Positions 7,292-63,460 of a DNA stretch of 64,000 bases are shown in pieces. The DNA comes from Boudabousia marimammalium (GTDB lineage: Bacteria; Actinomycetota; Actinomycetes; Actinomycetales; Actinomycetaceae): NCBI RefSeq assembly GCF_001936115.1, contig NZ_MPDM01000004.1, positions 124,001 to 188,000 of the forward strand. Direction: 5' to 3'. A program made the position numbers and the translations under genes. Each line of letters starts with the position of its first letter. Positions within the stretch are counted from its first letter, which is position 1. The notes under the pieces are model-generated. The model did no database searches, was not told where the DNA came from, and was given only the letters and a program-made list of their open reading frames with translations.

Positions 7292-7318
7292 CTCCCCCGC
7301 ATAATCAGAAACACAAAT

Positions 7319-7346
7319 AAAGCCTCGGGCAACTGCCCGAGGCTTT
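7319..7346. terminator. Bidirectional intrinsic terminator at the left edge of the prophage
   Basis: A near-continuous inverted repeat (7319-7331 with 7334-7346) begins with AAA and ends with TTT. It terminates the lipoprotein gene on the plus strand. Before integration it would also have been the native terminator of tRNA-Asn on the minus strand. It now lies between host transcription and the integrase. Confidence 0.85.
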
Positions 7347-7351
7347 AATCT

Positions 7352-7390
7352 GCTCCCGCGGCAGGACTCGAACCTGCAACCGTCCGATTA
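7352..7390. repeat. attL core (39-bp direct repeat, remnant of tRNA-Asn 3' half)
   Basis: Identical to 24752-24790. It holds the original chromosomal 3' half of tRNA-Asn from the anticodon outwards, now detached from its 5' half. The flanks differ at once: T at 7351 against G at 24751, and T at 7391 against A at 24791. That fixes the core boundaries. Confidence 0.95.
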
Positions 7391-7435
7391 TCGGTCTAAA
7401 ACGCGCGTTTTGCGTTTGGCGGCTTAGACTTGACC

Positions 7436-8233
7436 ATGGTTAATACATGGAAAACTGTTCTTGGTCGGTACGTAGTTCACTTGCAATCTCTAGGACGGTC
7501 TAAGGGCACTATTCGCCTCCATGCTCATTACATCAAGCAGTTTGCCCGCCATGCTCCAGCTCCCGCGTTAATGACGGTGGAGGCCATCGAGCACACCCTC
7601 GCTAATCCTGAGTGGTCGCCTGAGACACGTAAAAGTGCTAGAAGCGTGGCAGTAGTGTTTTTCGGGTGGACGTTCAGACAAGGCATTACGAGAGATGTAG
7701 CGGGGCACTTAGATACTGTGAGGGTGCCTCAGGGTGTACCGCGTCCCGCGCCGGATAATATCACTGAGCGGGCTTTGAATCGTGCGCCGTTGCGTACTAG
7801 GCAGATGATTCTGTTAGCTAGGTACGGCGGCTTGCGCTGCTGTGAGATAGCGGTGGTGCACGGCGATGATTGGGACGGCCAAATGCTACTTGTCCATGGT
7901 AAGGGTGGTAAACGGCGGCTGGTGCCGATTTTGGACGAAAGACTCACTACTACGCTGGATTTACTGGAAGAGTTCCTATTTCCGGGAAAGATTGACGGCC
8001 ATCTTTCCGCGGATCGAGTGAATCGGATTATCTCTAACGCTTTGCCGGGTAAATGGACGGCTCATACTCTCAGACACCGTTATGCGACGGCCGCTTATGC
8101 TGGGACTAGAGACTTATTAGCGGTTGGCAAGTTGCTAGGGCACTCAAGGCCGGAGACTACCCAAAGATATGTGTTAGAGCCTCAAGACGCGCTATTAAAC
8201 GCGGCGAGAGCGGCGAGAGCGGCGAGCGCCTAG
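7436..8233 (+). CDS. int: Tyrosine recombinase (phage integrase)
   Basis: Catalyses site-specific integration and excision at tRNA-Asn. The 265-residue product has an N-terminal SAM-like DNA-binding domain (about 5-90) and a catalytic domain with the first Arg in YGGLRCCEI, Lys in GKGGKRR, HTLRHRYATAAY (H-x-x-R), the His of LLGHSRPETT and the tyrosine in TQRYV. The C-terminus is a run of Ala/Arg codons from a 9-bp microrepeat, ending ASA. I took the ATG at 7436; an in-frame TTG at 7430 is possible (GGCGG 7 bases upstream). In the excised circle it begins only 2-8 bases after the stop of the extended repressor frame. In the prophage it sits behind the host terminator at 7319-7346. Confidence 0.95.
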   Translation: MVNTWKTVLGRYVVHLQSLGRSKGTIRLHAHYIKQFARHAPAPALMTVEAIEHTLANPEWSPETRKSARSVAVVFFGWTFRQGITRDVAGHLDTVRVPQGVPRPAPDNITERALNRAPLRTRQMILLARYGGLRCCEIAVVHGDDWDGQMLLVHGKGGKRRLVPILDERLTTTLDLLEEFLFPGKIDGHLSADRVNRIISNALPGKWTAHTLRHRYATAAYAGTRDLLAVGKLLGHSRPETTQRYVLEPQDALLNAARAARAASA

Positions 8234-8234
8234 A

Positions 8235-8450
8235 CTAACTGATACCTGATTGCCGCTTGACGCGCGGGCGGTTGGCTTGCCATTCGTCGATTGTTTCGGG
8301 CAGCCACACTGACATGTCACGACCTTTTTGCGCAGATATCACGGCGTCAGGGGGTGGGAGCATGCCTTTTTGGATATACCCTGAGATAGTATTTACGGAC
8401 AAGCCGAGTCGTCGCGCTACTGCCGCTGCGGCTAGATATCTAGTTGGCAT
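8235..8450 (-). CDS. xis: Small helix-turn-helix protein, putative excisionase
   Basis: A 71-residue basic protein with a MerR/AlpA-type winged helix-turn-helix at the N-terminus: YLAAAAVARRLGLSVNTISG, then YIQKGMLPPPDAV, and a basic tail. It converges on int with one base between the stop codons, a common position for a directionality factor. Its start overlaps the end of the 51-residue membrane protein gene, so the two are co-translated. The assignment as excisionase is inferred from fold and place; a small transcription regulator is the alternative. Confidence 0.6.
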   Translation of the reverse strand: MPTRYLAAAAVARRLGLSVNTISGYIQKGMLPPPDAVISAQKGRDMSVWLPETIDEWQANRPRVKRQSGIS

Positions 8451-23154: not shown

Positions 23155-23580
23155 TTAAACATTCCTTTTAGATAGTTGGGACACATAGTTAAGAAAGCCC
23201 TCTGCACGTTTACGATTCTGAGGGTGCCGCAACTTAGCTAATGCTTTTGATTCAACCTGCCTGACGCGCTCCTTTGTGACTCCGAAAACTTCACCAATGA
23301 ACTTCAGAGTTTGCGGCGGGTACCCAAGCAGTCCGTAACGCATAGCAAGCACCATGGCCTCACGCTCAGTCAGACAATCAATAAACCCTCTAATCTCAGG
23401 ATCTAAAATCTTAGGGCACGTGATTGCCAGACGATTCTCCAAGCCGTCAACGGCATAGCGCAGACCTTTAATCAGACCAAGCGCCAAATCAGGACGCTCA
23501 GCTTGCACCCGCTTTTCAACAAGGTTAATCTTCCGTCTAATCGCGGAAAACTGATTAGATTCAAAAGTTACTCCTGGCAT
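23155..23580 (-). CDS. Sigma-70 region 4-only protein, putative phage transcription regulator
   Basis: A 141-residue protein whose C-terminal half is a textbook sigma region 4: LTEREAMVLAMRYGLLGYPP, then IGEVFGVTKERVRQVESKALAKLRHP split over the helix-turn-helix. The N-terminal 70 residues have no recognisable region 2, so it should not recognise a -10 alone. Such proteins may act as late activators or redirect polymerase, as sigma-like late regulators do in some Gram-positive phages. Its ATG overlaps the preceding stop as TGATG. It precedes the replication and packaging genes. Confidence 0.8.
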   Translation of the reverse strand: MPGVTFESNQFSAIRRKINLVEKRVQAERPDLALGLIKGLRYAVDGLENRLAITCPKILDPEIRGFIDCLTEREAMVLAMRYGLLGYPPQTLKFIGEVFGVTKERVRQVESKALAKLRHPQNRKRAEGFLNYVSQLSKRNV

Positions 23581-23687: not shown

Positions 23688-24139
23688 TTTGATGTCCTTG
23701 AATCACCAAGGGCGGTACAATCACCGCATGGGCACTTTTGTAGATTTGCATTCAAAGATGTACGCATTATGGTTTCCACGAAACGAAGTAAAAGACGTGT
23801 ATTACGCGCTGATGTACGGCCGTGGCATTTTTGCTTTTGACATTCCCCGTGGTGCTGGCGGCCATTACGGGATTGATATTTTGAATCTGAAAGCGATTCG
23901 CCGGTGGACGCTGTGGGACTTTGATACTTGGCCCTCGACGCCAGAGCAGAGATTACTTGTTGTGGAGCTCGTATGGAATGACCATGACGGCTCTCTGGAG
24001 ATTCAGATGATTGAAGATGTTGAAGCGGCAAAAGCTGAATTCCTGTATGAGGATTAGCAGATTCTAAAACCTGAACGCTTACAACATTAGGCTCACCGCA
24101 AGCTTCACAAGTTGCAGTTATTACTAATTTTTTGCTCAT
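23684..24139 (-). CDS. Doubtful minus-strand frame coupled to the cro-like gene
   Basis: The ATG at 24139 overlaps the cro-like stop as ATGA, and the first 26 codons (MSKKLVITATCEACGEPNVV...) look like the start of a small CxxC protein. The remaining 125 codons lie opposite the moron-like gene and have a Ser/Arg/His-rich antisense composition. Either a short gene was cut by insertion of the plus-strand gene, or the whole frame is real and antisense. I favour the first. Confidence 0.25.
   Translation of the reverse strand: MSKKLVITATCEACGEPNVVSVQVLESANPHTGIQLLPLQHLQSSESPESRHGHSIRAPQQVISALASRAKYQSPTASTGESLSDSKYQSRNGRQHHGECQKQKCHGRTSARNTRLLLRFVETIMRTSLNANLQKCPCGDCTALGDSRTSK
23716..23721 (+). 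promoter_or_regulatory. -10 element of the moron-like gene
   Basis: TACAAT ends six bases before the ATG at 23728, so transcription would begin at or next to the start codon. The region at -35 (TGTCCT, 17-base spacing) is weak. Confidence 0.5.
23728..24057 (+). CDS. Moron-like protein of unknown function, opposite strand to the early operon
   Basis: A 109-residue protein starting MGTFVDLHSKMYALWFPRNE, rich in aromatic residues and with a normal composition, so this strand is probably the coding one. TACAAT lies at 23716-23721, six bases before the ATG, with no Shine-Dalgarno sequence: a leaderless promoter pattern, although the -35 is poor. The gene stands alone in the opposite direction inside the minus-strand early operon. 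That is the usual arrangement of morons, which are expressed from the prophage and often alter the host or exclude other phages. No homologue recognised. Confidence 0.65.
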   Translation: MGTFVDLHSKMYALWFPRNEVKDVYYALMYGRGIFAFDIPRGAGGHYGIDILNLKAIRRWTLWDFDTWPSTPEQRLLVVELVWNDHDGSLEIQMIEDVEAAKAEFLYED

Positions 24140-24354
24140 TCATCGTCTCCTTCGTCGATTAGCGGAGTGCTGAGCGCTCCGAGTTCAGCAAGTTTTTCTA
24201 CGTCGCCTAATGTCCACGAAATTTGTCCTTTTAAGCGGCGCGAGATTTGGGGCTGAGAAATGCCCAAAGACTGGCCAAGTGCCACCTGACGCACGCCAGT
24301 TGATTCAAGCCAGTCATTAACTCGGCTTGTAACGAGAGTGTTAATTTTGCCCAT
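24136..24354 (-). CDS. cro: Cro-like helix-turn-helix regulator
   Basis: A 72-residue protein, MGKINTLVTSRVNDWLESTG at the start, with a lambda-type helix-turn-helix: ALGQSLGISQPQISRRLKGQ, then WTLGDVEKLAELG. The domain is clearly related to the divergent repressor (same SQ/TQ..(I/V)SRR.(N/K)G...WTL pattern). I chose the ATG at 24354 because TATATT lies six bases before it (leaderless); a GTG at 24417 is in frame. It heads the minus-strand early operon, like Cro in other phages. Confidence 0.8.
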   Translation of the reverse strand: MGKINTLVTSRVNDWLESTGVRQVALGQSLGISQPQISRRLKGQISWTLGDVEKLAELGALSTPLIDEGDDE

Positions 24355-24452
24355 GCGCTCAATATATGCGTTTTGCGCAAGTTTTATGCGGGCGACACGC
24401 GGCGTGTCACGCTTCACTTGCCTAAGTTATGCGCGTGGCGCATACTGTAGGC
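24355..24452. promoter_or_regulatory. Immunity switch: divergent promoters and operator-like palindromes
   Basis: The 98 bases between cro and the repressor hold both promoters and three inverted repeats. Repressor promoter (plus): TTGCCT 24418-24423, 17-base spacer, CATACT 24441-24446. Cro promoter (minus): -10 TATATT at 24361-24366, weak -35. Palindromes: TTGCGCAA at 24373-24380; GACACGC-G-GCGTGTC at 24394-24408; TATGCGC-GTG-GCGCATA at 24428-24444, which covers the repressor -10. The last would fit autorepression. Confidence 0.7.
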
Positions 24453-24791
24453 ATGACTACATTAACTATTGCAAACACTGAAACGCCTACAATTTCAAGC
24501 ATTGTTGCCGCCAATATCCGCGCCGAAGCTGCACGGGCTGGAATAAATCAGGTCAAACTAGGCAGAATGTTAAATATGACACAATCGCAAGTTAGTAGGC
24601 GTTGGAACGGGTCATTAGTGTGGACTTTAGATGAGATGGGGGCAGTCGCACAGTTGTTAGGCGTTAGCGTGGCAGATTTAGTAACTCCACCGCGTGGAAA
24701 TAGCGGCAGATACACTAATCCCCCGGCACCTTACGGCACCGGGGGTGATTGGCTCCCGCGGCAGGACTCGAACCTGCAACCGTCCGATTAA
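24453..24791 (+). CDS. rep: Phage repressor whose C-terminus is encoded by the attachment site
   Basis: The 112-residue prophage form starts MTTLTIANTETPTISSIVAA and has a helix-turn-helix at about residues 38-60 (KLGRMLNMTQSQVSRRWNGS). The frame then enters attR, where it reads antisense tRNA-Asn (WLPRQDSNLQPSD) and stops at TAA 24789-24791, whose last A is the first host base. In the circular phage genome the base after the core is T, so TAA becomes TAT and the frame continues for 12 codons (YRSKTRVLRLAA) to a TAG at 7425-7427, just before int. The ATG at 24453 lies six bases after CATACT and has no Shine-Dalgarno. Confidence 0.85.
   Translation: MTTLTIANTETPTISSIVAANIRAEAARAGINQVKLGRMLNMTQSQVSRRWNGSLVWTLDEMGAVAQLLGVSVADLVTPPRGNSGRYTNPPAPYGTGGDWLPRQDSNLQPSD
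24720..24745. terminator. GC-rich hairpin inside the 3' end of rep, beside tRNA-Asn
   Basis: A 7-bp stem CCCCCGG/CCGGGGG (24720-24726 with 24739-24745) with a 12-base loop containing a GGCACC direct repeat. It lies 4 bases beyond the CCA end of tRNA-Asn on the minus strand and may replace the native terminator left at attL. No T-run follows, so termination is uncertain. Confidence 0.35.
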
Positions 24792-24824
24792 CAGTCGGAT
24801 GCTCTACCATTGAGCTACGCGGGA
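24750..24824 (-). tRNA. tRNA-Asn (GTT), rebuilt by the prophage
   Basis: A full cloverleaf: acceptor TCCCGCG/CGCGGGA, anticodon loop CTGTTAA with GTT at 24790-24792, T arm GTTCGAGTC, discriminator G, and encoded CCA. The 3' half, from the last anticodon base outward, is the phage-borne copy of the 39-bp core; the 5' half is host DNA. The original 3' end at attL continues GCA instead of GCCA, so the encoded CCA came with the phage. Confidence 0.95.
24752..24790. repeat. attR core (39-bp direct repeat)
   Basis: Perfect copy of 7352-7390. It serves at once as tRNA-Asn 3' half (minus strand) and as the last codons of the repressor (plus strand). Confidence 0.95.
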
Positions 24825-62194: not shown

Positions 62195-63460
62195 TCACGC
62201 ACTCTTTTTGGCTGCAACCGGAAGCTCTGACAGAGGAATCAGCTCCGGATCTGCGCCTTGAGTGACTACCTCTTTGGTGATGATTACCTGGCCGATATGG
62301 TTGAGCGAAGGTAGTTCAAACATGGTTTCTGAGAGGGTCTCCTCCAATACGGAAGAGAGTGCCCGCGCCCCGGTCTTTTGCTCTGTAGCCTTGCGGGCAA
62401 GAGCCAAAATGGCTTCGTCAGTAAACTTCAACTCGACCCCATCGAGGGCAAAGAGGTGCTGATACTGCCTGACCAGAGCGTTCTTCGGCTCTGTCAGGAC
62501 CTTTGCAAGGTCCTCCTCGGAGAGAGCCTCAACCGTGGCAACCACGGGAAGGCGCCCAATAAACTCAGGAATCATTCCGAACTTGTGAAGGTCTTCGGTG
62601 GTTACTTGAGAGAACAGATCACCGTGCTCAGCGGTAGATTTCAAATCGGAGCCGAAACCTGTGGAACGCTGCCCTAGGCGCGCCTTAACGATTGCGTCAA
62701 TACCAGCAAAAGCACCGGCAGCAATGAAAAGAATCCCGGCAGTATTAATCTCAATGAACTCTTGGTGCGGGTGTTTACGCCCTGGCTGCGGCGGCACCGA
62801 CGCAGTGGTGCCTTCAATAATCTTCAACAGGGCCTGTTGAACACCTTCACCAGAGACATCACGGGTAATCGATGCGTTCTCAGCTTTTCGGGCAATCTTA
62901 TCGATTTCATCAATGTAGATGATTCCGCGTTCAGCTTTCTTGACGTCACCATCAGCAGCTTGAATCAGTTTAAGCAGGATATTTTCAACATCCTCGCCCA
63001 CGTATCCGGCTTCTGTCAAAGCAGTAGCATCAACAATAACGAAGGGGACCTCCATATGTCTAGCTAAGGTTCGTGCCAGATGGGTCTTGCCCACACCCGT
63101 AGGACCAAGCATCAAAATATTGGACTTGGTTAGCTCCATATCGGTATCTTTGCCCAGATCGGCGGCACCGACACGCTTGTAGTGGTTGTAGACCGCGATG
63201 GCGAGCGCTTTCTTGGCCCGCGATTGGCCAATCACGTAGTTATCTAGGAAACTATAGATTTCCTTCGGCTTAGGTAGCTCACGTAAATTGACAGGTGCTT
63301 CAGAGTTTGAGGATTCTTCCGCAATGATCTCATTGCAAAGCTCAACGCATTCGTTACAGATGTAAACGCCCGGTCCACCAATCAGCTTACGGACCTGCTT
63401 CTGGGTTTTGCCACAGAATGAGCACTTTAACAGCTCAGACGTTTCGGTAAACCGTGTCAT
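62195..63460 (-). CDS. clpX: ATP-dependent Clp protease ATP-binding subunit ClpX
   Basis: The AAA+ unfoldase of ClpXP, which recognises ssrA tags among others. The 421-residue product has the N-terminal C4 zinc domain (CSFCGKTQ...CNECVELC), Walker [14 protein letters not shown], Walker [16 protein letters not shown], the IGF loop-type motif and a D2 small domain. It is downstream of clpP in the same direction with a 100-base gap. Confidence 0.98.

What the first reader, a model, noticed from the sequence alone, without database searches (positions are those of the whole stretch)
24453..24791. Repressor gene spans attP: integration removes an ssrA-like LAA tag (integration-dependent immunity)
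In the prophage the repressor ends at TAA 24789-24791. The first two bases of this stop (TA) are the last of the 39-bp core, and the third A is host DNA. In the excised circle the core is followed by T (7391), so TAA becomes TAT, and the frame goes on for 12 codons, YRSKTRVLRLAA, to TAG at 7425-7427. The viral form therefore gains a tail ending LAA, the C-terminal signal of ssrA tags recognised by ClpX. Established knowledge: in mycobacteriophages BPs, Brujita and Charlie, attP lies inside the repressor gene, the viral form carries a degradation tag, and only the integrated, truncated form is stable. Gene order here is the same: cro and rep divergent, int directly after rep. I infer that the phage uses the same switch, in a different actinobacterial family and in a 17-kb genome.
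Basis: partly seen in the sequence, partly recalled or inferred. Interest (0 to 1): 0.95.

Follow-up and report, generated by a model that had tools for sequence, protein, structure and literature searches.

The report
Phage repressor stabilised by chromosomal integration
A small virus dormant in this bacterium appears to carry a master off-switch protein that bears a self-destruct tag while the virus is free and loses it when the virus inserts into a host tRNA gene; the trick is known from related viruses of other actinobacteria, so this is a new example and not a new mechanism.

Summary
A 17.4-kb prophage lies in tRNA-Asn between 39-bp cores (7352-7390, 24752-24790). The repressor frame (24453-24791, 112 aa) runs through the right core and stops at TAA, whose third base is host DNA. 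In the excised circle the frame continues for 12 codons, YRSKTRVLRLAA, to TAG 7425-7427, just before int. The host tmRNA tag also ends in LAA, and clpX is present. Same-genus genomes carry an uninterrupted tRNA-Asn. The tag is not a chance ending: among 23 attPs rebuilt from prophages of the same family, 10 viral repressors end AA or VA (baseline about 2-4%), using different frames across different tRNAs. Related viral contigs and five sequenced actinophages with unrecombined rep-int junctions also end AA.

The system is integration-dependent immunity, described for mycobacteriophages (BPs, Brujita, Charlie), 17-kb Gordonia phages and small Bifidobacterium prophages. This is a new member in another host family. 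Degradation and immunity were not tested. Two regularities may be new: the lysogenic stop codon is usually the antisense of the host tRNA's anticodon loop, and the repressor ORF also encodes a hairpin that could replace the tRNA's terminator. About half of related prophages lack the tag, so attP inside rep does not by itself prove the switch.

The parts
24453..24791 (+). rep, immunity repressor, prophage form of 112 aa (Cro/CI-type HTH, BetR/HTH_3), ending NLQPSD*
   Evidence: Pfam BetR 8e-7 and HTH_3 above cut-off; PHROG transcriptional repressor phrog_4583 1e-14
24752..24790 (+). 39-bp attachment core at attR, inside rep and inside tRNA-Asn
7352..7390 (+). 39-bp attachment core at attL
7391..7427 (+). 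severed 3' end of the viral rep gene: encodes (Y)RSKTRVLRLAA and TAG 7425-7427
   Evidence: in silico attP
7436..8233 (+). int, tyrosine integrase of 265 aa (possible TTG start 7430); short, with no separate arm-binding domain detected
   Evidence: Pfam Phage_integrase 6e-16; PHROG integrase; alignment A1
24136..24417 (-). cro-like divergent HTH gene (GTG start as listed; inferred start ATG 24354)
24428..24444 (+). perfect 17-bp palindrome TATGCGCGTGGCGCATA, probable operator overlapping the inferred rep -10 element; imperfect copy at 24365-24381
24418..24446 (+). inferred rep promoter TTGCCT-17-CATACT, 6 nt before ATG 24453, so the rep mRNA may be leaderless
   Evidence: sequence; below the threshold of the promoter scan
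24720..24745 (-). hairpin inside the rep ORF, directly downstream of the restored tRNA-Asn: candidate replacement terminator
   Evidence: -27.3 kcal/mol for 50 nt, z -4.1
24750..24824 (-). tRNA-Asn(GUU), integration target; its anticodon loop read antisense supplies the lysogenic stop TAA
7318..7347 (-). host's own terminator of tRNA-Asn, displaced by 17.4 kb on integration
62195..63460 (-). clpX of the host, by chance in the same window
   Evidence: TIGR00382, 609 bits

Best explanation
Integration-dependent immunity. In the virion and the excised circle, rep and int form one rightward unit from a promoter between cro and rep; Rep is made with a 12-residue tail ending RLAA and is destroyed by host ClpXP (or a similar protease), so cro and the lytic genes are expressed. 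When Int recombines attP with the tRNA-Asn gene, the last 12 codons of rep and the int gene are cut away from the promoter. The host base A, from the antisense of the tRNA anticodon, completes a TAA stop, and the 112-residue Rep ending PSD is stable and holds lysogeny and immunity. Shown by sequence: the two reading frames, the junctions, the empty site in relatives, and the recurrence of AA/VA ends in relatives. Inferred: proteolysis of the long form, activity of the short form, promoter and operator roles.
For: Frames and junctions. Empty attB in the genus. Host tmRNA tag AEHNRTDFALAA and clpX. Ten of 23 rebuilt attPs in the family give Rep ending LAA, LVA, IAA, GAA or AAA, against about 2-4% baseline. 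Their prophage forms end otherwise (PSD, PTD, PFD, PAD, SGL, SDP, LCH). All three frames through the tRNA core are used among tagged ones (DSNxxP, FEPxTSG, TRTSNRP), so the end is kept although the path differs. Unrecombined rep-int junctions: IMG/VR contigs L139 ...VRPAA (Int 52% identical) and L144 ...HVRAA (50%), L189 ...FSLAA, L162 ...ILAA, L165 ...LTAA, L184 ...LPAA; phages SallySpecial MSAA, Rahul LHAA, McGonagall LVAA, Jambalaya PAAA, Charlie DSAA. Where the Rep stop lies well upstream of int (G209, G204, G058, G182c, L139, L144) the tag is still kept, which argues against the tail being only a coupling device.
Against: No induced circle, protein stability or immunity test. Thirteen of 23 related prophages lack an AA/VA end, including G020, which shares tRNA-Asn, prophage size and the same core geometry. 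Int here ends ASA, not AA as in most close relatives, so the second half of the known switch (a tagged integrase) is not met. IMG/VR L033 is identical to the window over 10,795 bp and is not independent support.
Confidence: 0.85

Rival explanations
1. The tail exists mainly to couple translation of int to rep: its TAG lies 8 nt before the int ATG, and the AA end is incidental.
For: No clear Shine-Dalgarno before int; the spacing is nearly the same in G074 (stop ends +37, int at +46). In several untagged relatives the rep frame overlaps the int start.
Against: In tagged relatives with the Rep stop well before int (G058, G182, G182c, G204, G209, L139, L144) the AA/VA end persists; AA/VA ends are 10 of 23 against 2-4% expected. 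Both roles can coexist.
Confidence: 0.08
2. Accidental: integration into a tRNA merely trims an unconstrained repressor tail, and both forms are equally stable, as appears to be the case in the tRNA-Met group of this family.
For: In the group G085, G124, G152, G178, G174, G174b the ~83-codon extension shows no codon-position bias and no tag, so attP within a rep frame can be incidental.
Against: The window has a 12-codon tail ending LAA, identical to the end of the host tmRNA tag; close relatives by integrase (L139, L144, G204, G209, G074) are tagged.
Confidence: 0.05
3. The tail inactivates viral Rep by another route (misfolding, blocked oligomerisation) and not by ClpXP.
For: PMC8092301 notes integration-dependent systems without ssrA-like tags in M. 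abscessus prophages, which presumably use other signals.
Against: LAA end here; BPs long and short forms bind DNA similarly (PMC4557955), so loss of activity there is by degradation.
Confidence: 0.05

Closest known systems
Integration-dependent immunity of mycobacteriophages BPs, Brujita, Charlie (Broussard et al. 2013; PMC4557955)
   Same: attP inside rep, divergent cro-like gene, int directly downstream of rep, viral form longer and tagged; Charlie Rep ends DSAA through the frame SNQRPADY, as here DSNLQPSDY
   Different: Tail of 12 residues instead of 33 (BPs); 17-kb genome; Int here ends ASA and not in an AA tag
Gordonia cluster CW phages McGonagall and Jeanie (17.1 kb; PMC5559632), and SallySpecial and Rahul (16 kb)
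   Same: Very small genome, same order of HTH genes, rep, attP, int and structural genes; Int about 40% identical; Rep ends VAA, SAA, HAA; hairpin before the core
   Different: Host family; tRNA-Lys target in CW; tail sequences unrelated
Bifidobacterium prophages Bb423phi2 and 689b-1 (PMC6109161)
   Same: Small prophages of the CW kind; in silico attP gives 18 extra residues with an ssrA-like end
   Different: tRNA-Met target; different host family
M. abscessus prophages MabB, MabC, MabK, MabN, MabO (PMC8092301, PMC9934374)
   Same: Stop codon made by the first host base at the junction in several; some tagged and others not; rep read in different frames through shared cores
   Different: Prophages of other clusters and another host family

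Membership tests
Integration-dependent immunity system | attP core lies inside the repressor ORF | tested here: met
   boundaries supported by the empty site in the genus
Integration-dependent immunity system | Repressor with HTH domain, divergent cro-like gene, tyrosine integrase directly downstream on the same strand in the circle | tested here: met
[quoted passage not shown]
   RLAA against PSD; host tag ...ALAA
Integration-dependent immunity system | Stop codon of the prophage form supplied at or near the junction by host DNA | tested here: met
   A24791 is host
Integration-dependent immunity system | Viral form degraded, prophage form stable and immunity-conferring | not testable with these tools
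   needs bench work
Integration-dependent immunity system | Integrase also carries an AA degradation tag (common, not universal) | tested here: not met
   Int ends AASA; close relatives end AAA or GAA; PMC8092301 reports systems without it, so it is not essential
Arm-less simple tyrosine integrase (Brujita type) | Short integrase without N-terminal arm-binding domain | tested here: inconclusive
   265 aa; only SAM-like core-binding and catalytic domains matched, the former weakly; arm sites not tested

The most novel reading that the evidence does not exclude
The repressor frame is matched to the target tRNA so that the host's anticodon loop, read antisense, supplies the lysogenic stop codon (TAA from GUU/CUU, TAG from UCU or ACG, TGA from CAU; 20 of 22 junctions). 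Stable repressor would then form only after entry into a suitable tRNA gene. The same stretch of the rep ORF also carries a hairpin that could replace the tRNA's terminator, so one stretch serves as repressor end, attP, tRNA half and terminator.
Probability: 0.3. Interest if true: 0.5.

Novelty: new member of a known kind. Interest (0 to 1): 0.4.

Why it matters
It extends integration-dependent immunity to another actinobacterial family, with ten tagged examples here, and shows that the tag end is kept across unrelated tails and different reading frames. It also warns that attP inside a repressor frame does not by itself prove the switch: a related tRNA-Met group has the geometry but neither tag nor coding constraint. 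For anyone studying immunity of such prophages, the repressor form to test is the truncated prophage form.

Tried and rejected
Considered that the long untagged tails of the tRNA-Met group (Leu/Pro/Ala-rich, ~83 codons) are a different inactivating domain: rejected because substitutions fall about equally on all three codon positions. Considered a repressor-integrase fusion in G126 (one open frame of 459 codons through attP): left as probable chance, since only some 55 codons between core and int need to be open and no second example was found. Fifteen family loci gave no core: truncated integrase, contig end, or other attachment sites. Considered L033 as a second isolate: rejected, identical to the window. 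No held paper combines integration-dependent immunity with Actinomyces. No structure was predicted, since the 124-residue form is not contiguous in the window.

Full report
Observation. The window holds a 17,400-bp prophage between two exact 39-bp cores, 7352-7390 and 24752-24790, which are the only two copies in the 1.84-Mb genome. The right core is the 3' half of tRNA-Asn(GUU), 24750-24824 minus. In the same-genus genomes G019 and G049 the orthologues of both flanking host genes lie beside an uninterrupted tRNA-Asn, so the site is empty there (G073 matched on the right side only). The repressor frame 24453-24791 (112 aa) enters the right core and ends at T24789 A24790 | A24791, the last base being host. 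Joining 24790 to 7391, as excision must, turns TAA into TAT and adds YRSKTRVLRLAA up to TAG 7425-7427; the integrase ATG is at 7436.

The proteins. Rep is a small Cro/CI-type HTH protein (BetR, HTH_3; PHROG 'transcriptional repressor'). The divergent 24136-24417 gene is of the same kind. Int is a 265-aa tyrosine recombinase. Between cro and rep lies a perfect 17-bp palindrome (24428-24444) over a weak promoter match whose -10 element is 6 nt before the rep ATG, suggesting a leaderless mRNA (inference, and below the threshold of the promoter scan).

Is the LAA end chance? The host tmRNA tag is AEHNRTDFALAA and clpX lies at 62195-63460. I searched the host family for related integrases, took the surrounding DNA and rebuilt attP in 23 prophages. 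In ten the viral Rep ends AA or VA: RLAA (window), VLVA, VLVA, RIAA, TIAA, PAAA, GAA, TLAA, GLAA, GLVA. In none of these ten does the prophage form do so. Open frames in the same DNA end so in 2.2% of cases (4.1% for long ones), and the off-frame tails at the same junctions in 2 of 45, one of which is the integrase frame itself (Fisher p = 4e-4 without the window). Relatedness among the prophages is not corrected for. The tagged tails differ in sequence and length (8-45 residues) and run through the tRNA core in all three frames.

Unrecombined junctions. In uncultivated viral contigs with a closely related integrase and an intact rep-int junction, L139 (52%) and L144 (50%), Rep ends VRPAA and HVRAA; L189, L162, L165 and L184 end SLAA, ILAA, LTAA and LPAA. 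Sequenced actinophages with related integrases or repressors end AA too (SallySpecial, Rahul, McGonagall, Jambalaya, Charlie). Rahul crosses its core in a different frame from SallySpecial and still ends AA.

Where it fails. Thirteen of the 23 lack the end. Six of them, in tRNA-Met, have ~83-codon extensions whose substitutions fall about equally on the three codon positions; there the open frame is probably incidental. In G020, a relative of tagged G074, the tail ends WRHEK, but the next frame reads LVKADGGVAGFADSRSWMSTVAA, as if a one-base shift had removed the tag. G126 has rep and int in one open frame; I take this as chance.

Two regularities. (a) In 20 of 22 junctions with a recognised tRNA the lysogenic stop lies in the antisense of the anticodon loop: TAA for Asn(GUU) and Lys(CUU), TAG for Arg(UCU) and Arg(ACG), TGA for Met(CAU); the rep frame differs with the tRNA accordingly, and phage DNA departs from host DNA at or just before that codon. 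Part of this is forced, because a frame stopped inside the core cannot span it, and the junctions are not phylogenetically independent. PMC8092301 already notes stops made by the first host base. (b) Just beyond the tRNA 3' end, inside the rep ORF, the window has an 11-bp hairpin (24720-24745; z -4.1) where the host had its terminator (7318-7347); many but not all relatives, and the Gordonia phages, have one as well. It may replace the terminator lost on integration.

Mechanism. Most likely: the free phage makes a Rep that ClpXP destroys; integration removes the tail, makes a stable Rep, and detaches int from its promoter. Shown: sequence, junctions, recurrence. Inferred: degradation, immunity, promoter use.

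Comparison. This is integration-dependent immunity, known from mycobacteriophages (PMC4557955), 17-kb Gordonia phages (PMC5559632), Bifidobacterium prophages (PMC6109161) and M. abscessus prophages (PMC8092301, PMC9934374). I found no report for Actinomyces-type hosts in the held library; the host genome itself is unnamed here, and its family was judged only from the kinship the genome search gives. It is a new member of a known kind. One frequent but not essential feature, an AA-tagged integrase, is not met (Int ends AASA).

Noticed in passing
window 8201-8233: The 3' end of int carries about three copies of the 9-bp unit GCGGCGAGA, giving Int the end ARAARAARAASA where close relatives end AAA or GAA; the repeat may have changed an integrase degradation tag.
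   Followed up: partly
window 8235-8450 (-): Small HTH gene convergent with int, similar to phrog_66 'excisionase and transcriptional regulator' and phrog_597: possible directionality factor.
   Followed up: no
window 23155-23580 (-): Phage-encoded protein with a sigma-70 region 4 domain (Pfam 2e-17) next to the immunity region; possible late-gene regulator.
   Followed up: no
L055/L056 (G020 prophage, oriented region, just after attL core end 640): The rep frame past the core is untagged, but the +1 frame ends STVAA: a natural tag loss by frameshift, or a damaged prophage.
   Followed up: partly
L073/L066 (G126 prophage): In the rebuilt circle rep and int form one open frame of 459 codons; chance is likely, but a viral repressor-integrase fusion split by integration is not excluded.
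   Followed up: partly
L068, L084, L088, L078, L061, L067 (tRNA-Met prophages): Between the core and int, short repeats of the kind CCAGCATTGCC recur about every 10-20 bp; perhaps arm-type integrase sites.
   Followed up: no
L108/L128 (G204) and L059/L060 (G058): The match between attL and attR extends well beyond the tRNA into rep coding sequence, so the host side of attL carries a rep-like remnant, perhaps of an earlier prophage at the same site.
   Followed up: no
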